64,000 nucleotides of DNA from Tepidiforma sp. (GTDB taxonomy: Bacteria > Chloroflexota > Dehalococcoidia > Tepidiformales > Tepidiformaceae): NCBI GenBank assembly GCA_026003935.1, contig BPIE01000001.1, forward strand, positions 806,001 through 870,000, in the 5' to 3' direction. The notes below the pieces were generated by a model that searched no databases, was not told where the DNA came from, and was given only the letters and a program-made list of their open reading frames with translations. Position 1 is the first letter of the stretch. Every line of letters starts with the position of its first letter. The position numbers and the translations under genes were made by a program. This document shows, piece by piece, positions 93 to 55,385 of the stretch.

Positions 93-107
93 GCGCACGG
101 GCGCTGG

Positions 108-1343
108 CTACAGCGGACAGATGTCGCGGTAGGTGTAGCGCGGGTTGGCGTAGCCGTGGTCCATGAGGCGCTGGACGTACCCGGGCGTATCGACGCCGGG
201 GCCGGTGATGGCGAGGTAGCGGGTCACTTCGAGGCAGCCGCCGACGACTGAGCCGCGCTCCTGGTAGCCCTTGCGGAAGGCCTCGGCGGCGTTGAGGAAG
301 ACGGGTTCTTTGCCTTCGAGGATGACACGGTCGATGAAGGGGTTGGCATCGCGGCCGTCGGCGGCGGCGGCGATGGCGATGCGCAGGAGCGCGTAGGTGA
401 CGAGTGCGCTGCGGCTTTCGCCGCGGTCGGTCTCGGCCTTCCAGTCGCGGAGGCTGGGGTTGGCGATGGCCTGTTCGTAGGCGGCGATGGCTTCCTCCCA
501 GAGGCCGCGGGCGAAGAGGGCATCGGCATCGAGGATGGCGTGGAAGAGGTATTCCGGGGGGTCGTAGGTGATGTCGCGGGCGCTGAATCGGCCGTCGCGC
601 AGGGTGTAGCGGTAGGTTCCGCCGCGGATGGGGCCCGAAGCGGGGCTGGCGGACGGCCGGGTGTGGAGCACGATGGCGGAACTGGCTCCGGTTCCTTCGA
701 GGGTGACACGGTCGATACCGACGACACCTTCGTCGGCCGGGCCGATGTCGCGCCAGGCGGAACCGTCCCAGGTGTAGACGCGGACGAGGCTGGCGCAGCG
801 GCTGGCGGTGCAGAGGTTTTCGAGGAAAGCGACCTCGGGACGGGGAAGGCCATCGCGGTCGGCGATGGAGAAGACGGCGCGGCCGAGGATGGAGGTATCG
901 GCTGCGCCCGGGGGCGAGAGGGCGACGTAGCCGGGCGCGGTGGAGAGGCTGACGAGGACGGCGCCGGGGTGAGGTCCGACGGGAGCGGACTGTTGGAGGG
1001 GCAGGAGCACGGCTGCATCGGGCGCGAGGTCGCCGTCGATGTCGGCGCGGAGGCAGGAGGTATTCCAGCGGTCGGCGACGGCCGGGTTGCAAGGGCCGAG
1101 CGCGGCATCGAGGCGGTCGAGGGCGGCGCGGGCGGCGGCGAGGTCGCCGGGCGGAGGGCCAATGGGGTCGGGGGTAGGTGTGGGGGTTGGCAACGGGGTT
1201 GGTGTGACGGCGGTTAGGGATGCCGCGGGCACGGTCGGCGTGGAGACAGCCTGGCCGCCGCAGGAGCAGCCCCCGGCGAGAAGGGGAAGCAATGCGATGA
1301 GCGCCGCTAGGGCGCGGGGGTGAGGTAGTTTTCGACCGCCCAT
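108..1343 (-). CDS. Secreted lipoprotein with helical repeat C-terminus, function unknown
   Basis: 411 residues. Residues 1-25 form a lipoprotein signal peptide: Lys/Arg near the start, a Leu/Ala-rich core and LLAGGC, with C26 as the lipidation site. A Thr/Pro linker of about 15 residues follows (near 45-60). The middle part has alternating hydrophobic strands, and the C-terminal third (FARGLWEEAIAAYEQAI and what follows) looks like TPR-type helices. The ATG at 1343 lies inside the preceding SH3 protein gene (37 bp overlap), so the two are probably cotranscribed and translationally coupled. An extracytoplasmic, membrane-tethered role is inferred; the substrate is unknown. Confidence 0.7.
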   Translation of the reverse strand: MGGRKLPHPRALAALIALLPLLAGGCSCGGQAVSTPTVPAASLTAVTPTPLPTPTPTPDPIGPPPGDLAAARAALDRLDAALGPCNPAVADRWNTSCLRADIDGDLAPDAAVLLPLQQSAPVGPHPGAVLVSLSTAPGYVALSPPGAADTSILGRAVFSIADRDGLPRPEVAFLENLCTASRCASLVRVYTWDGSAWRDIGPADEGVVGIDRVTLEGTGASSAIVLHTRPSASPASGPIRGGTYRYTLRDGRFSARDITYDPPEYLFHAILDADALFARGLWEEAIAAYEQAIANPSLRDWKAETDRGESRSALVTYALLRIAIAAAADGRDANPFIDRVILEGKEPVFLNAAEAFRKGYQERGSVVGGCLEVTRYLAITGPGVDTPGYVQRLMDHGYANPRYTYRDICPL

Positions 1344-23382: not shown

Positions 23383-23510
23383 GGTGGGCTACAGGATACG
23401 CGGGCCGGGGGTTTGGCCAAGGCAACGGCCTGGGAAACGATTCGCCGGGGACCGCTGCGGAAGTGCGGTCCTCGGCGGGGGCGAGGCGACGACCGGGGAG
23501 GCCGGCCGGG

Positions 23511-24338
23511 TCAGTCGCTCGCGGCTTCGTTCATGGGGAGGGGGCGAGGGGCGGGCGCGGAGGCGCTGGGGAGGCGGGTGTTGGCGAGGAGGTACGCGCC
23601 GGCGACGAAGAGGGCACCGCTGACGATGTTGCCGAGGGTGACCGGGACGAGGTTGTGGACGAACCCGGACCAGGAGACGGGGTCGGCGTGCGGCTGGAAG
23701 AGTGCGATGCCGAGGAGGGTCATGTTCGCGATGGAGTGTTCGAAGCCGGCGCCGATGAAGGCGAAGAGGCACCAGAAGATCATGATGAGCTTGCCGGCTT
23801 CCGATTGCTGCCGCATGGCCGACCAGACGGCGAGGCAGACGAGCCAGTTGCAGAGGACGCCGCGGAAGAACGCGTCTTCGAAGGAGAGGGTCATCTTGGT
23901 GGCGGCGACCTTTTGGATGAAGTCGGACTGGGGTGCTGTGCCGAGGGCGCCGCTCTGGGCGACGAGCCAGGCGAGGGCAAGGGAGCCGGCGAGATTGCCG
24001 CCGAAGCTGAGGACCCAGGAATTGGCCAGTGCGGCGGGGGAGATGGTTCGGCGGAGTGCGCCGACGGTCATGACCATGGTGTTGCCGGTGAAGAGCTCTG
24101 AGCCGGCAATGATGACGAGGGAGAGGGCGATGCCGAACGAGGCGCCCATGATGAATTTGAGGAAGGGGGAGCCGGCTGCGGAGAGCGGGGCTCCGATCGC
24201 GAAGATGAGGACGATGCCGAAGCCGACGTAGACGCCGGCGAGGGCGGAGAGGATGAGGTAGCCGTGGGGCTTTTCGCGGAGGTACGCGGCCTTTGCGGCG
24301 GCAGCTTTGCCAACGGTTTCCAGGGTATCGGCGGTCAT
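23511..24338 (-). CDS. Formate/nitrite transporter family channel
   Basis: 275 residues with six membrane helices. FNT motifs are visible, including FLKFIMGASFGIALSLVI, GSELFTGNTM and the central NWLVCLAVW helix. FNT proteins are pentameric channels for formate, nitrite or hydrosulfide. The ATG overlaps the nitrite reductase stop by 4 bp, so nitrite (NirC-like) is the likely cargo. Confidence 0.9.
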   Translation of the reverse strand: MTADTLETVGKAAAAKAAYLREKPHGYLILSALAGVYVGFGIVLIFAIGAPLSAAGSPFLKFIMGASFGIALSLVIIAGSELFTGNTMVMTVGALRRTISPAALANSWVLSFGGNLAGSLALAWLVAQSGALGTAPQSDFIQKVAATKMTLSFEDAFFRGVLCNWLVCLAVWSAMRQQSEAGKLIMIFWCLFAFIGAGFEHSIANMTLLGIALFQPHADPVSWSGFVHNLVPVTLGNIVSGALFVAGAYLLANTRLPSASAPAPRPLPMNEAASD

Positions 24339-25915
24339 GCGGTCACCTCTTCAGTTTCGACTGCATCGTCGGATGCGGGGCTGGACTTCGTTTCGAGTTT
24401 GAGGAGGGAGAGGGGGACGGTCTGGGCGAAGCGCTGGCGGACCAGAGCTTCGACGAGGACGGGGAGGTCTTCCCAGTGGACGTTTTCGAGGATACGGGAG
24501 GCGAGGCGCGGTTCTTCGCCGAGGCGGCCGCCGACGAAGACGTCGGCCGCTTCGTCGACGCGGTTGCCAAGGCGGATGTTGGTGCCCTGGAGACCGATGT
24601 CGGCGATGTGGTGCTTGCCGCAGGCGTGGATGCAGCCGGAGACGTGGATGCGGGTGCCGCGCGGGACCTGGACGCCCTTGCGTTCGAGCTCGATGCCGAG
24701 CTGGTAGGCGTGGCGCTTCGTGTCGATGAGGGAGAAGTGGCAGTAGTCGTTGCCGGTGCAGGCGACGAGGTGGCGCCAGATGTTGGAGGGGTTGGGCTTG
24801 AGGCGCTCGAGGAGCGGTTCGGCGAGGAGGGCGGAGAGGCTGGCATCGGGGACGTGGGGGATGACCACGTTTTGGTCGACGGTGAGGCGGAGCTCGCCGC
24901 GGCCGTATTCGTCGGCGAGGCGGGCGACGCCTTCGAGGTCTTCGGCGGTGATGCGGCCGACGGGGACGTGGAGGCCGATGTAGTTGAGGCCGACCTGCCG
25001 CTGGGGATGGATGCCGAGGTGGTCGCCGGCGACCTGGAGGCGCTCATCGAGGCCGGCGCGGGGGAGCTGGATGCCCATTTCGCGCTCCAGCTCGTCGCGC
25101 AAGCGTTCTTCGCCCCATTCGGCGATGAGCCACTTGAGACGGGCCTTTGTGCGGACATCGCGCGGGCCGCTGTCGCGGTAGATGCGGAGGAGGGCGAGGA
25201 AGAGGGGTACGACCTGGTCGGGGGTAACGAAGACATCGAGGGGGGAGGCAAGGCGGGGGCTGGTACCGCCGAGTGCTCCGCCGACGAGGACGTTGAAACC
25301 GGCCACTCTTCGGCCGCCGATATCCCGGGTGGCGGGGACGAAGCCGAGGTCCTGGGACTGGGCATCGCCGCAATCGTCGCGGCAACCGGCGATGGATACG
25401 TTGAACTTGCGGGGCAGGTTGGAGAACTCCTTCCCGGCGGCCAGGTGTGCGGCGGCGAGGGCATCGACGAGCGGCGTCGAGTCGAACAGCTCCATCCCGT
25501 CGATGCCGGCGAGGGGGCAGCCGATGAAGTTGCGGACGTTGTCCATGCCGGTCTGGCGGGTGGAGATTCCGGCTTCGCCGAGTCGACCGATGATGCCGGG
25601 GATATCGGGGAGGAGGAGGTCGCGGAGCTGGAGGTTTTGGCGGGTGGTGATGTCGCAGGTGCCGCCGCCAAAGTCGCGGGCGATGGCGGCGATGGCACGC
25701 GCCTGGTCAGAGGTGAGGCGCCCGCCGGTGATGCGGAGGCGCATCATGAAGGTGCCTGGCTTTTGGGGCCGGTGGAAGACGCCGTACCACTTCATGCGCT
25801 GGAGGTCGTCTTCCGGGATGGCGTCGACCGGTGTCCGCTCGTCGGCGTAGCGGAGGAGGTCCGGCCAAACGTCGAGACCGTCTTTTTCTGCCTTGAGCGC
25901 TTCGAATTTGTTCAT
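24335..25915 (-). CDS. nirA: Siroheme nitrite reductase, ferredoxin-dependent type
   Basis: 526 residues. It has two ferrodoxin-like half domains (TFMMRLRITGG; GTCDITTRQNLQLRD) and the siroheme/4Fe-4S cysteine set: C-x5-C in ACTGNDYCHFS and C-x3-C in SGCIHACGKHH. It reduces nitrite to ammonia with six electrons from ferredoxin. Sulfite reductases share these motifs, but the coupled FNT channel gene supports nitrite. No nitrate reductase gene lies in the window. Position is first in the two-gene operon. Confidence 0.85.
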   Translation of the reverse strand: MNKFEALKAEKDGLDVWPDLLRYADERTPVDAIPEDDLQRMKWYGVFHRPQKPGTFMMRLRITGGRLTSDQARAIAAIARDFGGGTCDITTRQNLQLRDLLLPDIPGIIGRLGEAGISTRQTGMDNVRNFIGCPLAGIDGMELFDSTPLVDALAAAHLAAGKEFSNLPRKFNVSIAGCRDDCGDAQSQDLGFVPATRDIGGRRVAGFNVLVGGALGGTSPRLASPLDVFVTPDQVVPLFLALLRIYRDSGPRDVRTKARLKWLIAEWGEERLRDELEREMGIQLPRAGLDERLQVAGDHLGIHPQRQVGLNYIGLHVPVGRITAEDLEGVARLADEYGRGELRLTVDQNVVIPHVPDASLSALLAEPLLERLKPNPSNIWRHLVACTGNDYCHFSLIDTKRHAYQLGIELERKGVQVPRGTRIHVSGCIHACGKHHIADIGLQGTNIRLGNRVDEAADVFVGGRLGEEPRLASRILENVHWEDLPVLVEALVRQRFAQTVPLSLLKLETKSSPASDDAVETEEVTA

Positions 25916-26041
25916 GCCGCCTCACGGAGGATGTGCTGGGGGGATTGTTGGGGGCGGCGGTTACGGGGCGATGGCGGGCGGATGACTTTTGAGTTGCGCG
26001 GAGATGTCGTCCTGTTTGCGGGGTGGTTTCGGGGAGATGAC

Positions 26042-26077
26042 GCGCGGCGCCCCCGGTGTGTACCGGGGGCGCCGCGC
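26042..26077 (-). terminator. Strong hairpin after gap
   Basis: A perfect 15-bp inverted repeat of G and C (26042-26056 with 26063-26077) with a six-base loop lies about 30 bp after the gap stop. No T-run follows, as with the other hairpins here. It separates gap from nirA. Confidence 0.75.
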
Positions 26078-26105
26078 TGTGTTGGTCCGGGTTGAAGGGG
26101 CCGGG

Positions 26106-37266: not shown

Positions 37267-37399
37267 GGAGCTGCTCCGGAAGGTGGGGTGTGAGGGGAAG
37301 GGTGGGGCGCGGGGGCGAAAGTGACAAGCGGGGTAGGAGGTGGGAGCTGGGAGATTGGGGGTAGACTGCGGGGCAGTTCGATGGCGCGAGGTTGTGTGC

Positions 37400-38329
37400 A
37401 TGAGCGAGGAGTTGCGAGCGGACCGGTTTCGGGTGGAGAGGGCTGCGCCCCGGGGGTTCATGCAGGCGTTCATCCGGGAAGGGGTCGGCGGCGTCCCGGT
37501 CCTCCTGGTCCACGGCTGGCCGGAAACGAAGCGCATCTGGTGGCGGAACATCGAGCCGCTGGCAAGGGCGGGGTTCGAAGTCATCGTTCCCGACCTGCGC
37601 GGGTTCGGAGACTCGGAGGTCGGCCCCGACGGCTTCCACGATGTGCCGTCGCATGCGCGGGACCTGTATGCGCTGGCGCACGACTACCTCGGGCACGAGC
37701 GGGTGGTCGCGGTTGGGGGCGACCTCGGCGGCCCGGTGGTCCAGGACCTCTCCCTCCGGTTCCCGGGGTTCGTGGAGCGGATGGTGCTGTTCAATTCGCC
37801 GTTGCCGTTCGACCGGGAGCGGATGGCGGGGATGCGGACGCGGCCCCCGCGGGAGGCGTCGGACTATTTCGTGCGGCAGGGGACGGACGCAGACGCGCTG
37901 GCGGCGGAGCTGGCAACGCCGGAGATGCGGCGGCGGTACATCGCGACGTTCTACACGTCCCGGTTCTGGGCACACCCGGGTGCGTTCTCGCCGGAGGCTG
38001 TCGACTTCATGACGGAGCCGTTCGCCGATGGCGCGAAGCTGCGGGCGAGTTTTGGCGCGTATGAGTCAACGTTCCAGGAGCGTGCGCGGAGCGAACCCCC
38101 GGCGATGGCGTGTCCGAATCCGACGCCGACGCTCATCCTCTTCGGGCCGAGCGACCACGTCATCTACCCGGACTTCGACTTGATGGCGGCCCGCGTCTTC
38201 CCGAACCACGCCGGGCCGTTCCTGCTGCGGGACTGCGGGCACTTCGTACAGTGGGAAGCGGCGCACGCACTCAACTCGGCGGTGACGGCGTGGTGCGGCG
38301 ACCTGCTGGCGGGACGGCGGCGTCAGTAG
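37400..38329 (+). CDS. Alpha/beta hydrolase, epoxide hydrolase or dehalogenase-like
   Basis: 309 residues. The oxyanion motif is VHGWPET (38-43). The nucleophile elbow GGDLGGP places an Asp (D108) as nucleophile, the hallmark of epoxide hydrolases and haloalkane dehalogenases. The catalytic His is H281 in DCGHFVQWE. WWRNIEPLARAGFEVIVPDLRGFGDS is typical of the epoxide hydrolase group. Its 3' end overlaps the X1 gene on the other strand by 7 bp. Pieces of a related 3' end recur twice in the array that follows. Confidence 0.88.
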   Translation: MSEELRADRFRVERAAPRGFMQAFIREGVGGVPVLLVHGWPETKRIWWRNIEPLARAGFEVIVPDLRGFGDSEVGPDGFHDVPSHARDLYALAHDYLGHERVVAVGGDLGGPVVQDLSLRFPGFVERMVLFNSPLPFDRERMAGMRTRPPREASDYFVRQGTDADALAAELATPEMRRRYIATFYTSRFWAHPGAFSPEAVDFMTEPFADGAKLRASFGAYESTFQERARSEPPAMACPNPTPTLILFGPSDHVIYPDFDLMAARVFPNHAGPFLLRDCGHFVQWEAAHALNSAVTAWCGDLLAGRRRQ

Positions 38330-38976
38330 TTCCAGGTCCAGGATTGCTGGTACTGCCAGTTTGCCGGGTTCTCGATGTCGTAGGTGCCGAGGGTCCCGAA
38401 ATTCGTCCAGTTGGCGGACCAGAACGATGGTTCCGCCCCTTGATGCAGGTGCTGGCCGGCCCAGGGACAGGACGCGCTCTTCTCTTGCGCGACGGAGAAG
38501 CCGACTTCGGACTTGCTGAAGGACCAGGACGGGCTCCCGCTGGCGTACACCCACCACCCCGGCGTCCACGTTCGGCTGTGGACGTAATGGACTACGCCCT
38601 TTGGGAATTGGAATACGTCTCTGACGGCGAGCGTTACTCGGTAACAGGCGTCAGTATCGTTCTGCTGGATGAATGCTTCGGCGATGGTGCCGGTTCCGCC
38701 GGAGCGGTAGCCGTACGAGCGCCAGAAGATGGGACGGTTGGGCGCCCACGACTGGTGTCCGTTCGCCCAGTCGAGTGCGTTGCCAGGCGTCGGCGGGTTC
38801 AAACACGTTTCGTGCCAGCTGCAGTTGAGGGCGGCGAACCGGGCCTCCGGACCGGGGTGAACCCGGAGTGTGAGGTATTCGGTGACGGCCGCGGCCTGGC
38901 GGGGGCCAGGCAGTGAGGTGGCGAATCCTGCGATGAACCCGGCGGTGAAGGTGAGCAGGGCGAGTAAGCGGGTCAC
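38323..38976 (-). CDS. X1 copy I: secreted Trp-rich protein of unknown function
   Basis: 217 residues starting with GTG at 38976, overlapping the X2(I) stop by 4 bp. Residues 1-30 form a signal peptide or anchor (LLALLTFTAGFIAGFATSLPG). The body has SLTLRVHPGP-like VTEYLTLRVHPGPE, a Cys pair (CSWHETC), then NALDWANGHQSWAPNRPIFW, a HYVHSRTWTPGWW segment and the C-terminus NWQYQQSWTWNY. It has many Trp and Tyr. Four more Cys suggest disulfides outside the cell. I recognise no domain. It is the only undamaged X1 copy. Confidence 0.7.
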   Translation of the reverse strand: MTRLLALLTFTAGFIAGFATSLPGPRQAAAVTEYLTLRVHPGPEARFAALNCSWHETCLNPPTPGNALDWANGHQSWAPNRPIFWRSYGYRSGGTGTIAEAFIQQNDTDACYRVTLAVRDVFQFPKGVVHYVHSRTWTPGWWVYASGSPSWSFSKSEVGFSVAQEKSASCPWAGQHLHQGAEPSFWSANWTNFGTLGTYDIENPANWQYQQSWTWNY

Positions 38977-39780
38977 GGCCGGGTCTCCCCGAGGATCGCC
39001 TCGGCGAACTGGAGCAAGAGCGGCAGCGGCATGTTGCCCTGCATCCACGTGAGCACGCCATCGCGATAGGTGACCAGCGCGGTGATGCCGACGCCGAGGT
39101 CCGGGAGGATGGGGACCGCTACCGCCGCAGGGGCACCCGCCACCTCCATCTCGCGCACCCGGGGCGCGGGCAGGTGCAGCGACACCGCGGGCGGCTCCCG
39201 GTCGACCACCACCCGGTTGACCGACAACGCTCCACCAAACGGGGCCAACCCGGGGATGACCGGCAGGGAGTACGACGCACTCGCGCCGACCGGGCCGCGG
39301 CCGCTGCAGGAGAGCACGTAGATGGCGTCGGGGAGGCAACCCGCCCGGGTTCGGATGGACCAGCGGGAGCTCGACCCGGCTCCCGCGCGTGACGGAGAGC
39401 TCGGAGTACCAGGCGGGGTCGTCGCACCACGCCGTCGGGTCGTAGAAGTCCCCTGCACCGGGGCCGATGTGGACCCCGGCGATCACTCCATCGAACCGCG
39501 GCAGCCGGAGGTCCGCCTCGTGGTAGGGGTCCGCCCAAAACGGCTTGCTCGTGTCCGGGTCGAGCGAGAGCCCGGTATGCGGGTCAACGGCAGCCGTTGG
39601 GGTCGCGGTTGGGGCGGCGGCTGTCGGGGTTGCGGTTGGGGCGGCAGGCGTCCCCGCAGCGGCCGCGGGCGGTGAGCCCTCCTCCCCGCCAATTTGGCGG
39701 CCAAGCGCGAATCCCGCCGCTCCCAGCACGAGGGCGACGAGCGCCGCTCCGATGACGACGCGTGCACGCGACATCGTCAT
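38973..39780 (-). CDS. X2 copy I: membrane-anchored protein, frameshifted
   Basis: Starts MTMSRARVVIGAALVALVLG, a membrane helix, then GRQIGGEEG and a Thr/Pro/Ala linker. The ectodomain begins DPHTGLSLDPDTSKPFWADP. Relative to the intact copy II, nine bases (39329-39337) replace a run of eight G, so the frame shifts after LPLVHPNPGG. The remainder, ending GVLTWMQGNMPLPLLLQFAE and ILGETRP, continues in another frame and is otherwise nearly identical to copy II. Length is one base over a multiple of three. As written it would produce a truncated protein. Confidence 0.7.
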
Positions 39781-39830: not shown

Positions 39831-39853
39831 TCAACACCGGCCGGCCGCCAGCG

Positions 39854-39900
39854 CGCTTCGCGAAGGCGCCGTACCCGCGGCGGGACTGCGGGCAGTTCAT
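39854..39900 (+). pseudogene. Truncated 3' fragment of an alpha/beta hydrolase gene (unit I/II junction)
   Basis: Reads RFAKAPYPRRDCGQF in the frame of the hydrolase C-terminus and then breaks directly into the first codons of an X1 copy. It corresponds to the region around the catalytic His (RDCGHFVQWE in the full gene), here with Gln in place of His. A remnant of the tandem duplication. Confidence 0.7.
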
Positions 39901-39920
39901 GGGGCGAGCAGGCGGGTCAC
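39897..39920 (-). pseudogene. X1 copy II remnant: seven codons
   Basis: GTG at 39920 overlaps the X2(II) stop exactly as in units I and III. The reading VTRLLAP then stops at a TGA created by fusion to the hydrolase fragment. The rest of X1 is deleted in this unit. Confidence 0.75.
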
Positions 39921-40723
39921 GGCCGGGTCTCCCCGAGGATCGCCTCGGCGAACTGGAGCAAGAGCGGCAGCGGCATGTTGCCCTGCATCCACGTGAGCAC
40001 GCCATCGCGATAGGTGACCAGCGCGGTGATGCCGACGCCGAGGTCCGGGAGGATGGGGACCGCTACCGCCGCAGGGGCACCCGCCACCTCCATCTCGCGC
40101 ACCCGGGGCGCGGGCAGGTGCAGCGACACCGCAGGCGGCTCCCGGTCGACCACCACCCGGTTGACCGACAACGCTCCACCAAACGGGGCCAACCCGGGGA
40201 TGACCGGCAGGGAGTACGACGCGCCCGCGGCGACCGGGCCGCGGCCGCTGCAGGAGAGCACGTAGATGGCGTGGGGGGGGAACCCGCCCGGGATCGGATG
40301 GACCAGCGGGAGCTCGACCCGGCTCCCGCGCGTGACGGAGAGCTCGGAGTACCAGGCGGGGTCGTCGCACCACGCCGTCGGGTCGTAGAAGTCCCCTGCA
40401 CCGGGGCCGATGTGGACCCCGGCGATCACTCCATCGAACCGCGGCAGCCGGAGGTCCGCCTCGTGGTAGGGATCCGCCCAAAATGGCTTGCTCGTGTCCG
40501 GGTCGAGCGAGAGCCCGGTATGCGGGTCAACGGCAGCCGTTGGGGTCGCGGTTGGGGCGGCGGCTGTCGGGGTCGAGGTTGGGGCGGCAGGCGTCCCCGC
40601 AGCGGCCGCGGGCGGTGAGCCCTCCTCCCCGCCAATTTGGCGGCCAAGCGCGAAGCCCGCCGCTCCGAGGACGAGGGCCGCGAGCGCCGCTCCGATGACG
40701 ACGCGTGCACGCGACATCGTCAT
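39917..40723 (-). CDS. X2 copy II: intact membrane-anchored protein of unknown function
   Basis: 268 residues, the only intact X2. One N-terminal membrane helix (residues 8-27), a Pro/Thr linker to about residue 65, then an external domain with AWCDDPAWYSELSV, YVLSCSGRGPV and LHLPAPRVREMEVAG. The end, TYRDGVLTWMQGNMPLPLLL, recalls the tail of DUF4367-like domains in which a short strand is followed by a helix (eeLlkiAesi), though this likeness is weak. Two Cys in the ectodomain may pair. Its X1 partner is deleted. Confidence 0.75.
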   Translation of the reverse strand: MTMSRARVVIGAALAALVLGAAGFALGRQIGGEEGSPPAAAAGTPAAPTSTPTAAAPTATPTAAVDPHTGLSLDPDTSKPFWADPYHEADLRLPRFDGVIAGVHIGPGAGDFYDPTAWCDDPAWYSELSVTRGSRVELPLVHPIPGGFPPHAIYVLSCSGRGPVAAGASYSLPVIPGLAPFGGALSVNRVVVDREPPAVSLHLPAPRVREMEVAGAPAAVAVPILPDLGVGITALVTYRDGVLTWMQGNMPLPLLLQFAEAILGETRP

Positions 40724-40795: not shown

Positions 40796-40921
40796 CGCTT
40801 CGCGAAGGCGCCGTACCTGCTGCGGGAGTGCGGGCACTTCGTACACTGGGAAGCGGCGCACGCACTCAACTCGGCGGTGACGGCGTGGGGCGGGGGCCTG
40901 CTGGCGGGACGGAGGCGTTAG
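40796..40921 (+). pseudogene. 3' fragment of an alpha/beta hydrolase gene (unit II/III junction)
   Basis: 42 codons reading RFAKAPYLLRECGHFVHWEA and on to LLAGRRR with a stop, clearly homologous to the last 45 codons of the hydrolase at 37400. The first part differs more (AKAPY versus NHAGPF), so the fragment may come from a paralogue. It keeps the catalytic-His motif but no start or fold. Its stop overlaps the X1(III) stop as in the intact locus. Confidence 0.8.
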
Positions 40922-41600
40922 TAGTTCCAGGTCCAGGATTGCTGGTACTGCCAGTTTTCTGGGAATGAGATGGCGTAACTTACACCGGCGCTAGTGAAAA
41001 TTGCCCAGTTTACCGCCCACCATCCGGTGAAGTCCCTGTCCTGGTGGAGGTGTTGCCCGGTCCAGTACCCGCCAGCCACGCACGAGGGAAACTCGGTCGA
41101 CCGGCTAACCCGACCTGTTCAACCGACCATTGCCAGGAAGACGACCCGTTGATCGAGAACTGCCAGCCGGGCGTCCACGTTCGAGAATGGACGTAGCTGA
41201 TGTAGCCTTTCGAGAATCCGAACACGTCGATGACAGCAACGCGAAGCGCGGCACAAACCCCGTCGGCCTGGATGATTTGTCCGGTGGCGATGGCTCCAAA
41301 CTGATTAGGGTTTGACCTAAAGCCGCGTGACCGCCAAAGGATCGGGCGGTCGGGTGCCCAGCTCGCGTGTCCGTTGGCCCAGTCGAGCGCCGAGCCCGCG
41401 GATGGGGGGTTCGTGCAGGCGGCATGCCACGAGCAGGTCAACGCAGCGAGCGACTGCTCTGGGCCCGGATGGACCCGCAGGGTGACCGATTCCGAGGCGG
41501 CTGCAGCTGGGGGCGGCGGCCGGTCCAAGACGAGCGGGAGATTGCCGAGCCAGAACCCGCCAGCGAGGGCAACTGCGTACACCAGCACCCGCGGGTTCAT
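40918..41600 (-). CDS. X1 copy III: diverged secreted protein, frameshifted
   Basis: ATG at 41600 overlaps the X2(III) stop by 4 bp. It has a signal peptide (VLVYAVALAGGFWLGNLPLVL) and the X1 landmarks VTLRVHPGPEQS, CSWHAAC, SALDWANGHASWAPDRPILW and YVHSRTWTPGWQ. The frame is lost near a GGG run (41086-41088). One added base restores CVAGGYWTGQHLHQ and the shared NWQYQQSWTWNY end. Total length is one base short of a multiple of three. Overall it is clearly diverged from copy I, so the duplication is not recent or selection varied it. Confidence 0.65.
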
Positions 41601-42416
41601 TTCAGGAGCTCCTCCGCGGCGGTGAGGAGCGCCTCCTCAGTCAAACCCTGGCTGGTGATGACCGTCACGACACCGTCCCGGACGGCGACCACGGCACCGG
41701 AGCCGAATCCGATACGGGGGAGAGGCGGCACCGCTAGGACGGCGGGGCCGCCGCCGACCCGGACTTCGCGGACGCGGGGAGCGCGGAGCTGGACGAGGGC
41801 GATCGGGGTTCGACGGGTCACCGGCAAGGTAGCGAAAGACCCAGAGGTCCCCGCCGCGCGGAGCGCCACCCGGGTGGGGCAACAAGGAGAAGGTGGCCTC
41901 GGCCGCGACCGCTCCTCCGTCAGCGCACGCCACGACGCGAACCTCGCCCGGCTGCGCGACGACGCCCGGAATCCCGGGCGTGCGGATAGCGACCGGCGAA
42001 TCCGCGATATCAGCCAGCGAGCGCGAACCGGGCGGGAGATACGATGCGCACGGCGCGATGCGGGAGCTGGCGCCGCCGACTCCGTCGGCGGGGGACGGCT
42101 CGATACGAACCCCTGCCAGCGTTCCTTCGAAGAGCGGCAGCCGGGATTCCGCTTCGGTGTATGGCACGTGCCACAGAGGCCTGGTCGTATCTGGCTCGAG
42201 CGAGAGCCCGGTATACGGGTCAACGGCAGCGGCCTGGGTCGCGGTTGGGGCGGCGGCCGTCGGGGTTGCGGTTGGGGCGGCAGGCGTCCCCGCTGCGGCC
42301 GCGGGCGGTGAGCCCTCCTCCCCGCCAATTTGGCGGCCAAGCGCGAATCCCGCCGCTCCCAGCAGGAGGGCGACGAGCGCCGCTCCGATGACGACGCGTG
42401 CACGCGACATCGTCAT
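41597..42416 (-). CDS. X2 copy III: same head, different ectodomain, frameshifted
   Basis: The first 60 or so residues match copies I and II (MTMSRARVVIGAALVALLLG, then the Thr/Pro linker). After VDPYTGLSLEPDTTRPLW the sequence diverges: SRIAPCASYLPPGSRSLAD and PGEVRVVACADGGAVAAEAT. The C-terminal quarter (LVQLRAPRVREVRVGGG, VVAVRDGVVTVITSQGLTEE) lies in another frame. One base is extra, probably in the GGGG at 41876-41879. The tail resembles a DUF4367-like ending more clearly than copy II does. Confidence 0.65.
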
Positions 42417-42549
42417 ACCACTCCTCCTCTTCAAGCTATAGCGAAGCCTAGCACGCGGGGGGGGCGTCAAGACCGACGGGTGATTATCCGGGAGTCCGGA
42501 ACCCGGGGTTGCGCTGCGAGTTCGCCGGTCTTTCCTGGTGTCACGGGTG

Positions 42550-42591: not shown

Positions 42592-45500
42592 TCAGGCGGA
42601 CGGGTCGGCCGCGCGCTTCGAGCGGAGTTCGCGCTCGGATGCGGTTTCCGGACGGGGCAATCGGCGGGGCTTTGCCTGTGCGGCGGGCCGGGTGTCCGGG
42701 GCGGCCTCGCGGGCGGCCCTGGCGTCGATGCGCCCGGCAGCGGCGGCTGCACGGCGGGCGACCGTTTCGGCGCCGGCGCGGCCGTTGGCGGCGGGGGCCG
42801 CGGCCGGGACGAGGCCGTCGGGTGAAGCCGGTGCGCTGTACGTCCCGGCGGCTTCGAGGATCGGCCGGAGGTAGCGCCCGGTGAAGCTCGCTTCGCAGCG
42901 GGCGACTTCCTCCGGGGTGCCGGTGACGACGACCTGGCCGCCGCGGTCCCCGCCGAGGGGGCCGAGGTCGATGATGTGGTCGGCGGACTTGATGACATCG
43001 AGGTGGTGTTCAATGACGACGACGGTGTTGCCAGCATCGACCAGGCGGTGGAGGACATCGAGGAGGTGGGCGACGTCCTGGAAGCTGAGGCCGGTCGTCG
43101 GTTCGTCGAGGACGTAAAGGGTGCGGCCGGTGGAGCGGCGGGAGAGCTCGCTGGCGAGTTTGATGCGCTGGGCTTCGCCGCCGGAGAGGGTGGTGGCGGG
43201 CTGGCCGATCTTGATGTAGCCGAGGCCAGTGGCTTCGAGGGTGTCGAGGATGCGCTTGATGCGGGGGAACCGTTCGAAGAATTCGACCGCCTCGGAGACG
43301 GTCATGTCGAGGACCTCGGCGATGTTCTTGCCGCGGAAGGTGATTTCGAGCGCCTCGCGGTTGTAGCGCCTGCCGTGGCAGGCCTCGCAGGGGACGGTGA
43401 CATCGGGGAGGAACTGCATTTCGACGATTTTGTAGCCGTCTCCGGCGCACTCTTCGCAGCGGCCGCCTTTGACGTTGAAGGAGAAGCGGCCGGCCTTGTA
43501 GCCGCGGGCGCGCGCTTCGGGGACGGAGGCGAAGAGCTCGCGGATGAGGGTGAAGGCGCCGGTGTAGGTGGCGGGGTTGGAGCGGGGAGTGCGGCCGATG
43601 GGGGACTGGTCGATATCGACGACCTTGTCGATGTGCTCGAGGCCCTCGATGGTGTCGTGGGCGCCGGGGCGCTGGCGTGCTCCGTGGAGGACCTGGAGGG
43701 CGCGGGGCACGAGGATGTCGGTGATGAGAGAGGATTTGCCGGAGCCGGAGACGCCGGTGACGGCGACGAGCTTGCCGAGGGGGATGTCGACGGTGATGTT
43801 GCGGAGGTTGTTTTCGCGGGCGCCGACGATGCGAATCGTTTTGCCATTGCCAGGGCGGCGCTGCGGCGGGACGGGGATTTGGCGGCGACCGGAGAGGTAG
43901 GCGCCGGTGATGCTCTCGGGGTGGTCGAGGATGGCTGGGAGCGGCCCCTCGGCCACGACGCGGCCGCCGTGGATGCCGGCACCGGGGCCCATGTCGATGA
44001 TCCAGTCGGCGGCACGCATCATCGCTTCGTCGTGTTCGACGACGAGGACGGTGTTGCCGAGGTCGCGGAGCCGTTCGAGGGTGCGGATGAGGCGGTCGCC
44101 GTCGACGGGGTGGAGGCCGATGGAGGGTTCGTCGCAGATATAGAGCACGCCCATGAGGGCGGACCCGATCTGGGTGGCGAGGCGGATGCGCTGGGATTCG
44201 CCGCCGGAAAGGGTGCCGGAGACGCGGTCGAGGGTGAGGTAATCGAGGCCGACGTCGACGAGGAACTCGAGGCGGGAGCGGATCTCCTTGAGGACCTGGA
44301 CCGCGATCGTTCGCTCGCGGGGGGAGAGCGGGGTTTCGGGGCCGGCGAGGCGGTCGAACCAGGCGCGGGCCTCGGCGATGCTCATGGCGCTGACGTCGGA
44401 GATGGGTCGGCCGTCGACGAGGACGGCGAGCGCCTCGGGCCGGAGGCGGCGCCCGCGGCACTCGGGGCAGGGGATGGCGGCCATGTATTTTTCGATCTCG
44501 GCGCGGACGTAGTCGGAGTCGGTTTCTTTGTAGCGCCGCTGCAGGTTGGGGATGACGCCTTCGTAGCGGGTGTCGTAGACCTGGGTTCGGCCGTATTGGT
44601 TGGTGAAGCGGAGGCGAAGGAGGCGGTCGCCGGTACCGTAGAGGAGGGCGTGGAGCTGGGCGTCGGTGAGCTCGCTGATGGGGGTGTGGATGTTGAAGCC
44701 CTGGTCTTCGGCGACGGCCTCGAGCTGGCGGAGGTACCAGCCGGCGATGCTGGGGGATTTGGACCAGGGTTCGACGGCGCCCTCGGCGATCGACTTCGTC
44801 CGGTCGGGAATGACGAGGGCGGGGTCGATCTGCATTTCGACGCCGAGCCCGGTGCAGCGGGGGCAGGCGCCGTGGGGGCTGTTGAAGGAGAAGGTGCGGG
44901 GTTCGATTTCGCCGATGGAGGTGCCGTCGTAGGGGCAGGCGAAGTGCTCGGAAAAGATGCGCTCGGCGGGCGGCTCGGGGGCGCCTTCGGGAGCGCCGCC
45001 GGCGTAGCCGACGATGATGACGCCCTGGCCGACTTTGAGGGCCTGCTCGACGGAATCGGCGATGCGGCTGGATGCGGCGGGATCGGCGCCGGGCTCGGGG
45101 ACGACGAGGCGGTCGACGACGACGTCGATGTCGTGGCGTTTTTTCTTGTCGAGGCCGGGGAGCTCGTCGATGTCGTAGACCTGGCCGTCGATGCGCACGC
45201 GGACGAAGCCGGCGCGGCGGGCCTCGTCGAAGATGCCGGCGTGCTCACCTTTCTTGGCGCGGGCGACGGGGGCGAGGAGGAGGAGCCGGGAGCCGGGTGG
45301 GTAGGCGAGGATGGCGTCGGCGATTTGCTGGACGGTCTGGCGCTCGATGGGTCTGCCGCAGACGGGGCAGTGGGGGCGGCCGATGCGGGCCCAGAGGAGG
45401 CGCATGTAGTCGTAGATTTCGGTAACGGTGCCGACGGTGGAGCGGGGGTTGTTGGAGGTGGATTTCTGGTCGATGGAGATGGCCGGGGAGAGCCCGTCGA

Positions 45501-45732
45501 TGTGGTCGACGTCGGGCTTTTCCATGAGGCCGAGGAACTGCCGGGCGTAGGCGGAGAGGGATTCGACGTAGCGGCGCTGCCCTTCGGCGTAGATGGTGTC
45601 GAAGGCGAGGGAGGATTTGCCGGAGCCGGAGAGGCCGGTGATGACGACGAGCCGGTCGCGGGGGATGCGGACGTCGATGTTCTTGAGGTTATGTTCGCGT
45701 GCGCCGCGGACGAGGATGTGGTCGAGTGGCAC
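42592..45732 (-). CDS. uvrA: Excinuclease ABC subunit A
   Basis: 1046 residues from GTG 45732. Two ABC modules: Walker [15 protein letters not shown] and [13 protein letters not shown]; signatures [17 protein letters not shown] and [16 protein letters not shown]. Zinc modules include [12 protein letters not shown] and CEECAGDG with CEACHGRR. It scans DNA for bulky lesions and loads UvrB. The frame is open to 45837, but the GTG starts the usual [18 protein letters not shown]. The last 100 or so residues are an Ala/Arg-rich low-complexity extension beyond normal UvrA length (about 940). A possible LexA box lies upstream. Confidence 0.97.
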
Positions 45733-45782
45733 GGGGGGCCTTTCGCGGGTGTCGGTGACAGGCGGCGGGGCGCCTATGTTCG

Positions 45783-45788
45783 AGTGTA
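45783..45788 (-). promoter_or_regulatory. -10 element of the uvrA promoter
   Basis: TACACT on the - strand, 50 bp before the uvrA GTG. No good -35 is visible. Confidence 0.4.
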
Positions 45789-45817
45789 GCGCGGGTGCGC
45801 GGTGATGATGGTAGGGC

Positions 45818-47165
45818 GTGTTCGAACGTTTGTTCAATGGCGGCGGGGAAGGGGCGGCTACCGCGGAAGGGCCCGCGGCCCGATGCTTACGGCTCGTGCA
45901 GGCGGTGCTTCTCGGGCTGGTGCTGCTGCTGACGGTGGCCGCGCTCTATGTGCGGCCGTTCGGTGCCCGGGACTGGCAGGTGGCGGTCGGGGGTGCGCTG
46001 GCGGCGTGGGCGCTGGGTCCGCTGGGGTTCCGGGAGGGGCTCGAGGCGGTGGCGGCATTCGGCGAATCTGCTGGCCTTTTTCTTCGGGCTGATGCTGGTC
46101 GCGGCGGGTGCTGAAGCCGCGGGGCTCTACGGCAGGGTGGCGCGGCTGCTGGCGCGGAGGGGGACCGTGCGGGGCCGGGTGTTGATGGTACTGCTGACCG
46201 GTTCGGGCGTGACGGCCGTGCTTTCGAACGATGCAACGCCGCTGGTGCTGACGCCGGCGATTTTCGCGGCGGGACCGGCGGGTGCGCGGGCCACGACGGA
46301 TTCGGCGTTTGCGGCGACGTTCATCGCTGATGGAGCGAGCCTGCTTCTCCCGGTCAGCAACCCGGTGAACTTGCTGTTTTTCGAGCGTTTCGAACTCGGG
46401 TTCTGGGGGTACCTTGCGATGGTGACGCCGGCTGCCGCAGCGGGGGCAGCGGTGTTGGCGGCGGTGACGATGCGGCAGGCAGCGGGAGAGGAAGCAGCGA
46501 GCGCCCCGGTGTGGACTGCGTCGGCCCGGCCGGTCGGCCCGGCGCTGGTGGTGGTGGCAGGGCTGGGGGCGGCCTATGTCGGTGCCGGGGTGGCGGGCTT
46601 TCCGCTGGGCCTCGTGACGCTGGCTGGCGGGCTGGCGATGGCGGCGGCAGCGCGGCTGGGCGGCCCGGTCGATGGGCGGCAGTTTCGCCGGCATATTGCG
46701 CCGGGAGTGCTGGCGTTCGTGGCGGGGCTGGTGCTGCTGGTGGAGAACGTGGTGGCGGCAGGAGCGCTGGACTGGCTCGCGGGGCTGCTCGGGTGGCTGG
46801 AGGGTGGGCCGGCGCTGGTGACGGTCGGGGGTGCGGCGGTCGTTGCGGCGGTGCTCGCGAACCTGATGAACAACTGGCCTGCGGCGCTGGTGATTGCTGC
46901 GGCGATTGGTTCGCGGCCGGGTGAGCACGAGGCGCTGGTGACAGGGGCGCTCATCGGCTCGACGCTCGGCGCGAATTTCACGATGGTGGGCTCGCTCAGC
47001 ACGGTGTTTTGGGTGAGCCTGTCGCGGCAGTACGGCGCCAGCTACGGGGTTTCGGAGTATGCGCGGCGGGCCTTCGTGCCGACGCTGGCGGGGATGGCTG
47101 CGCGGCGGCGGCGGGGCGCTGGCGGTGAGCGCGCGCTGCTTCGGCTGGCGGTGAGCGCGCGCTAG
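45818..47165 (+). CDS. ArsB-type (arsenite/Na+ antiporter family) transporter, frameshifted
   Basis: The first frame runs from GTG 45818 (alternative GTG 45896) through two membrane helices to [13 protein letters not shown]. The second frame begins [20 protein letters not shown] near 46065. It holds the ArsB motifs [37 protein letters not shown] and [21 protein letters not shown]. Joining them needs removal of one base around 46045-46065. The complete protein would have about 10-11 helices and export an oxyanion such as arsenite, though no arsR or arsC is nearby. The 3' end meets the RibD-like gene convergently with a 4-bp overlap. Confidence 0.75.
45823..45836. promoter_or_regulatory. Possible LexA/SOS box upstream of uvrA
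   Basis: CGAACGTTTGTTCA contains GAAC-N4-GTTC, the Gram-positive/actinobacterial LexA core. It lies 35 bp upstream of the uvrA -10 and overlaps the first codons assigned to the divergent transporter. A core of eight fixed bases is expected about once by chance in 64 kb, so position next to uvrA is the main argument. Confidence 0.4.
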
Positions 47166-54864: not shown

Positions 54865-55385
54865 AGGGGCTGGCGCAGCTAGGGGCGGTATTTCTCGCGG
54901 CGATTGCCCAGGTGACGGTCGCGCCGCTCTTCCCGATTGCGGGGGCGAACCCGCAGCTGGTGCTCTTGATGCTGTGCCTGGTGGCGGCGTTCAGCGGGCC
55001 GGTGCCGGCGATGGTGCTGACGCCGGTAGGTGCCGTGATGCTGGGGATGCTTTCGGACCGCGATGCGGGGCTGCTTCTGCTGGCGTATCTGCCGGTGGTG
55101 GCGCTCGGGGCGCTGCTCGAAGATGCGCCGGTGCCGCTGAGCCATGCGGCGAAGACGTACTCGATGACGCTGGGGGCCGGGCTGGTCGCGAGGTCGGTCC
55201 TTGCTGCGGGGGCGATGCTCGGCGGCGCGCCTGCGGCGATTGGGGCGCTGGTGAGCGACGTGCTGGTGCCGGGGGTGTTCATCGACATGGTGCTGCTCAC
55301 GTTATGCTATGTTCCGCTGCGGCTCGCCGGGCTGAGGGGGAGCGGGTTCCGGCTGCAGCGGGGAAGGTACTTCGCGAGCCTATGA
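54861..55385 (+). CDS. mreD: Rod-shape-determining membrane protein MreD
   Basis: 174 residues with five or six membrane helices. The start is GTG, overlapping the mreC stop by 4 bp. The MreD pattern is weakly conserved but visible (PIAGANPQLVLLMLCLVAAF with later DVLVPGVFIDMVLLTLCYVPLRLA). Its position between mreC and mrdA settles the call. Confidence 0.9.
   Translation: MKGLAQLGAVFLAAIAQVTVAPLFPIAGANPQLVLLMLCLVAAFSGPVPAMVLTPVGAVMLGMLSDRDAGLLLLAYLPVVALGALLEDAPVPLSHAAKTYSMTLGAGLVARSVLAAGAMLGGAPAAIGALVSDVLVPGVFIDMVLLTLCYVPLRLAGLRGSGFRLQRGRYFASL

What the first reader, a model, noticed from the sequence alone, without database searches (positions are those of the whole stretch)
41597..42460. 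X2 copy III keeps a near-identical head but has a different ectodomain
From the leader through the anchor and linker (about 42240-42460), unit III DNA matches unit I with very few differences. Downstream of the linker the protein is largely different. A conserved head with a variable tail suggests gene conversion limited to the 5' part, or exchange of ectodomain cassettes, as in surface-antigen variation.
Basis: partly seen in the sequence, partly recalled or inferred. Interest (0 to 1): 0.6.

Follow-up and report, generated by a model that had tools for sequence, protein, structure and literature searches.

The report
Mosaic duplicated envelope-protein gene in Tepidiforma
In a hot-spring bacterium, the start of one duplicated envelope-protein gene has been overwritten with that of its neighbour while its outer part kept a very different sequence; recombination patchworks like this are well known in outline, but here they occur in an unnamed gene pair that related species seem to swap.

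Summary
X2-III (minus strand, ATG at 42416, stop at 41597) matches X2-I/II at 92-99% from 42477 to about 42203 (60 bp of leader, anchor, linker), then drops to 52% across its 580-bp ectodomain. Outside copies settle the cause. X2-III of Tepidiforma sp. KatS3mg064 is the orthologue: 94.5% in the body but only 83-93% in the head. At 276 diagnostic sites the window's X2-III is copy-I-type at the first 21, then almost wholly III-type, switching at +213/+221. That is recombination of the 5' part.

It is one of several mosaics. X2 and X1 form an overlapping two-gene operon. Between the two units the X2 head and the X1/hydrolase 3' ends are alike, while the 1.2 kb between is about 50-65% identical. 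In T. flava and KatS3mg064 (flanks 94% identical) unit 2 is not alignable. Unit 1 is 98-100% identical across species except a ~140-bp foreign patch in X1A.

Cassette-wise homologous recombination is well supported. Surface-antigen switching is not: no silent array or expression site was found, and the host is a free-living thermophile. Three copies carry frameshifts that may be assembly errors. Function of X2-X1 is unknown; secreted protein plus anchored partner is inference.

The parts
42203..42477 (-). Recombined head of X2-III: 61 bp upstream region with ribosome-binding site, start, membrane anchor, Pro/Thr/Ala linker; copy-I-type sequence
   Evidence: 92-99% to X2-I/II, 21 of 21 diagnostic sites copy-I-type; first III-type site at 42195
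41597..42195 (-). Body (extracytoplasmic domain) of X2-III, 52% identical to X2-I, 94.5% to X2-III of KatS3mg064; 1-nt insertion near 41803
40921..41600 (-). X1B, small secreted protein; start ATG overlaps the X2-III stop (ATGA); frame broken near 41100
   Evidence: intact 227-aa orthologue in KatS3mg064
40810..40925 (+). Remnant of the hydrolase 3' end (part of the 168-nt repeat 40810-40977, 90% to 38215-38382): scar of the tandem duplication
   Evidence: family D4; present at the same place in KatS3mg064
39917..40723 (-). X2-II, intact 268-aa copy, no X1 of its own; recent tandem duplicate (943-bp spacing)
   Evidence: single I-type copy in both relatives
39840..39905 (+). Shorter hydrolase 3' remnant at the junction of the X2-I/X2-II duplication, fused to the first codons of X1
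   Evidence: family D5
38973..39780 (-). X2-I, frame broken by 1 nt near 39326; body 98-99.5% identical to T. flava and KatS3mg064
38323..38976 (-). X1A, intact 217-aa secreted protein; GTG start overlaps the X2-I stop (GTGA)
38560..38700 (-). Patch in X1A, about 70% identical to both relatives inside a 98-100% identical gene; donor not found
37340..38329 (+). Alpha/beta hydrolase (Abhydrolase_1) on the 3' side of the cluster, source of the remnants

Best explanation
X2 (single-pass, membrane-anchored, about 190-residue extracytoplasmic domain) and X1 (small secreted protein) form a translationally overlapping two-gene operon that was tandemly duplicated together with the 3' end of the neighbouring hydrolase gene. 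The two units now differ by ordinary homologous recombination acting piece by piece. In the window's lineage a tract of about 275 bp (promoter region, ribosome-binding site, anchor, linker) of X2-III was overwritten by a copy-I-type donor, and the exchange stopped where homology between the units collapses, at the start of the ectodomain. An older event of the same kind, or import of a divergent X2-body/X1 cassette between conserved ends, made the chimera in the common ancestor with KatS3mg064. Unit 1 spread recently between Tepidiforma species. SHOWN: breakpoint, orthology of the body, non-orthology of the head, interspecies near-identity of unit 1. INFERRED: gene conversion rather than a double crossover with imported DNA, direction of the older event, membrane topology, and any selective reason.
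For: Sliding identity: X2-III to X2-I 92-99% in the head, 52% in the body; X2-III to KatS3mg064 X2-III 83-93% in the head, 94.5% in the body. Switch of all diagnostic sites between +213 and +221. Head and body topologies reject each other. T. flava's second copy has no shared head: 50% in head and 53% in body. Units share both ends (X2 head; X1 and hydrolase 3' ends 84-96%) around a 50-65% interior in the window and in KatS3mg064, not in T. flava. Four-fold sites of the X2-I body: 140/140 with T. flava, 144/144 with KatS3mg064; neighbouring genes 67-90%. Hydrolase remnants mark the duplications. X2-X1 pairs recur in the family and diverge together (Mantel r 0.83, P 0.0004).
Against: Only three genomes carry the duplicated locus, so the number and order of events rest on few branches; the head tree is weakly supported (49-79%). 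X2-III's linker resembles the T. flava copy I (97%) more than the window's own copy I (94%), so the donor may have been an imported allele rather than the neighbour. The window is a 72% complete draft with several frameshifted genes; assembly chimerism in near-identical repeats is not fully excluded, although X2-III's head carries differences found in neither X2-I nor X2-II.
Confidence: 0.8

Rival explanations
1. Selection alone: the anchor and linker are kept by purifying selection while the ectodomain evolves fast after an old duplication.
For: Anchors and linkers can be under composition constraint; the body is divergent in all copies.
Against: Identity extends to synonymous sites and to 61 bp of non-coding DNA; the orthologous head in KatS3mg064 is more different than the paralogous head; T. 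flava's second copy has a wholly different head (50%).
Confidence: 0.04
2. Assembly artefact: reads of the copy-I head were placed on X2-III in a draft genome with near-identical repeats.
For: Draft of 6 contigs, 72.55% complete; several window genes are frameshifted relative to T. flava; three of five X genes are frameshifted.
Against: X2-III's head differs from X2-I and X2-II at sites including the linker CAGG change, which T. flava's copy I shares; KatS3mg064, assembled separately, has the same kind of chimera in milder form (94% then 82% head, 53% body).
Confidence: 0.08
3. A programmed antigenic-variation system like vls or pilin switching, in which silent cassettes feed an expression site.
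For: Tandem copies, a conserved head with variable body, partial copies lacking X1.
Against: Each intact copy has its own start and ribosome-binding site; only three copies; no other head-bearing cassettes in the genome; variation seen is between species, not shown within a population; the organism is a free-living thermophile. In vls the silent cassettes are about 90% identical to the expressed cassette (PMC11499132), here the interiors are 52%.
Confidence: 0.03
4. Functional rival: X1 is a secreted antagonist and X2 its membrane-anchored immunity or anchor partner, and cassettes are exchanged as in polymorphic toxin-immunity loci.
For: Obligate-looking pair with overlapping genes, co-divergence, patchy distribution (13 of 294 genomes of the class), X2 copies without X1 at this locus in two congeners and X2-II here, transfer between species.
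Against: No match of either protein to toxin, immunity or defence families or solved structures; the X1 motif HLHQ resembles peptidase M23 only over 10 columns; no activity tested.
Confidence: 0.2

Closest known systems
Gene conversion between tandem bacterial paralogues (segmental, RecA-dependent)
   Same: Short tract copied between neighbouring paralogues, ending where homology drops
   Different: Donor may be an imported allele; the enzymes were not examined
Rhs core/tip diversification by C-terminal displacement (PMC2935791)
   Same: Conserved N-terminal part joined to divergent C-terminal parts, homologous recombination with laterally acquired alternatives
   Different: X2 has no Rhs core; here a second gene and its 3' end are included in the exchanged interior; no array of dissociated tips
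Effector-immunity replacement in Vibrio cholerae T6SS clusters (PMC5361080)
   Same: Two-gene cassette exchanged between conserved flanks, leftover partner copies
   Different: Function of X1/X2 unknown; no secretion system at the locus
vls antigenic variation of Lyme Borrelia (PMC11499132)
   Same: Segmental recombination of surface-protein cassettes
   Different: No silent array, no single expression site, much lower cassette identity, no demonstrated switching

Membership tests
Gene conversion / mosaic paralogue | Sharp switch of ancestry along the gene | tested here: met
   switch between +213 and +221; topology tests
Gene conversion / mosaic paralogue | Donor identified in the same genome | tested here: inconclusive
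   X2-I/II are 92-99% identical in the head, but the linker is closer to T. flava copy I
Silent-cassette antigenic variation (vls, pilin) | Array of promoterless cassettes feeding one expression site | tested here: not met
   only three copies in the genome, each with leader and ribosome-binding site
Silent-cassette antigenic variation (vls, pilin) | Variants arise within one population | not testable with these tools
   no population or read data
Polymorphic toxin-immunity pair | Recognisable toxin or immunity domain | tested here: not met
   no family match
Polymorphic toxin-immunity pair | Adjacent co-diverging gene pair with orphan partner copies | tested here: met
Peptidase M23 (for X1) | HxxxD and HxH zinc motifs in an M23 domain | tested here: not met
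   HLH present, HxxxD absent; profile comparison aligns 10 columns, probability 1.4%
RseB/LolA-like sensor (for X2) | Fold match | tested here: not met
   best RseB hit probability 0.57, TM-score 0.23, E 0.47

The most novel reading that the evidence does not exclude
X2-X1 is an unrecognised two-gene system of thermophilic Dehalococcoidia in which a secreted effector-like protein and its membrane-anchored partner are diversified by exchanging the 1.2-kb interior between conserved ends, both between tandem copies and between species, as part of competition between close relatives.
Probability: 0.15. Interest if true: 0.65.

Novelty: new member of a known kind. Interest (0 to 1): 0.4.

Why it matters
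It gives a clean, checkable case of recombination confined to the export module of an envelope protein in a phylum with little population genetics, and points to an unnamed gene pair (no Pfam, NCBIfam, PADLOC or PDB match) whose unusually fast transfer between species suggests it is under selection worth testing.

Tried and rejected
Peptidase M23 for X1: suggested by the invariant HLHQ, rejected by profile comparison. X1 structure: model unusable, pLDDT 37. X2 fold: usable model (pLDDT 71) but no significant PDB match. Phage origin: no relative in viral contigs (X1 alignment could not be searched). Defence-gene library: no match. Sigma-70 promoter in the converted leader: none found. Donor of the X1A patch: none in six genomes of the genus.

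Full report
Setting. The window lies in a draft genome of 1.6 Mb (72.55% complete). Its nearest named relatives in the collections are Tepidiforma flava YIM 72310 (L037) and Tepidiforma sp. KatS3mg064 (L036). Reading the minus strand from uvrA (42592-45837) to a plus-strand alpha/beta hydrolase (37340-38329) the order is X2-III, X1B, hydrolase remnant, X2-II, short remnant, X2-I, X1A. X2 stop and X1 start overlap by 4 bases (GTGA in unit 1, ATGA in unit 2), so X2-X1 is an operon. X2 has an N-terminal helix and a Pro/Thr/Ala linker before the body; X1 has a signal-like N-terminus and invariant CxWH, GxxLDW and HLHQ motifs. Neither matches Pfam, NCBIfam (X1 only tested), PADLOC or solved structures.

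Observation. X2-III and X2-I agree at 58/62, 99/100 and 103/110 positions in upstream, +0..100 and +100..210 segments, then 24/30 and 287/552 (profiles). The shared tract runs from 42477 to about 42203.

Cause. In KatS3mg064 the orthologous X2-III has the same body (549/581, 94.5%) but a more distant head (83%, 93%, 86% in the three segments). At 276 sites where copy-I-type sequences agree and KatS3mg064 X2-III differs, the window's X2-III is copy-I-type at the first 21 and then III-type with few exceptions; the switch lies between +213 and +221, and a run of 21 was not reached in 100,000 shuffles. Trees of head and body reject each other (AU p 0.03 for the body tree on head data, 2e-9 for the head tree on body data), although head branches are weakly supported. 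Synonymous and non-coding identity excludes selection on protein alone.

A layered history. KatS3mg064's own X2-III head is still closer to copy I (94% then 82%) than its body is (53%), while T. flava's second copy shows no shared head (50% and 53%). So the chimera began before the split from KatS3mg064 and was refreshed in the window's lineage; this ordering is inference from three genomes. The tract ended 20-30 bases before homology between units collapses in KatS3mg064, as expected for homologous recombination. The donor is uncertain: upstream the tract is closest to X2-II (60/61), in the linker to T. flava copy I (107/110).

Cassette exchange. Comparing whole units, unit 1 and unit 2 are alike at the X2 head and again at the X1 and hydrolase 3' ends (84-96% in the window, 90-92% in KatS3mg064), with a 1.2-kb interior at about 50-65%. 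T. flava and KatS3mg064 flanks are 94% identical, yet their unit 2 interiors do not align at the DNA level. Unit 1 shows the opposite: 98-100% between all three species where the background is 87%; four-fold sites of the X2-I body are 140/140 and 144/144 identical, X1A outside the patch 59/59, neighbouring genes 67-90%. A patch of about 140 bp in the window's X1A (38560-38700) falls to about 70% with sharp edges; no donor was found in the genus. X2-I/X2-II is a further, recent 943-bp tandem duplication with a hydrolase scar at its junction.

Function. X2-X1 pairs occur elsewhere in the family; X1 was found in 13 of 294 genomes of the class. The two proteins diverge together across eight pairs (Mantel r 0.83, P 0.0004), which shared descent could also give. 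Two congeners keep X2 at this locus without X1. A cognate pair is likely; toxin-immunity is one possibility among several and untested. Tepidiforma is monoderm with peptidoglycan and an S-layer (PMC10284905), so X2 would face the space under the S-layer; cell-surface exposure is not shown.

Quality caution. X2-I, X2-III and X1B each carry a frameshift, while orthologues in the relatives are open; several other genes of the window are also frameshifted against T. flava, so sequence errors are as likely as decay.

Noticed in passing
window 43001-44900: Part of uvrA is 95-96% (best 560 bp 99.1%) identical to KatS3mg064 but about 92% to T. flava, a second possible recombination tract near the cluster.
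   Followed up: partly
window 9000-62000: Several conserved genes (for example near 55150, 50200 and 60160) are split between frames relative to T. flava orthologues, suggesting indel errors in the draft.
   Followed up: partly
window 38560-38700: Sharp-edged divergent patch in X1A with no donor in six genomes of the genus.
   Followed up: yes
L036:6001-6831: Copy I of KatS3mg064 has a 27-bp expansion of the linker repeat (an extra TAPTATPAG unit).
   Followed up: no
window 23430-26080: A stretch with no match in the syntenic regions of T. flava or KatS3mg064, whose flanks align on both sides.
   Followed up: no
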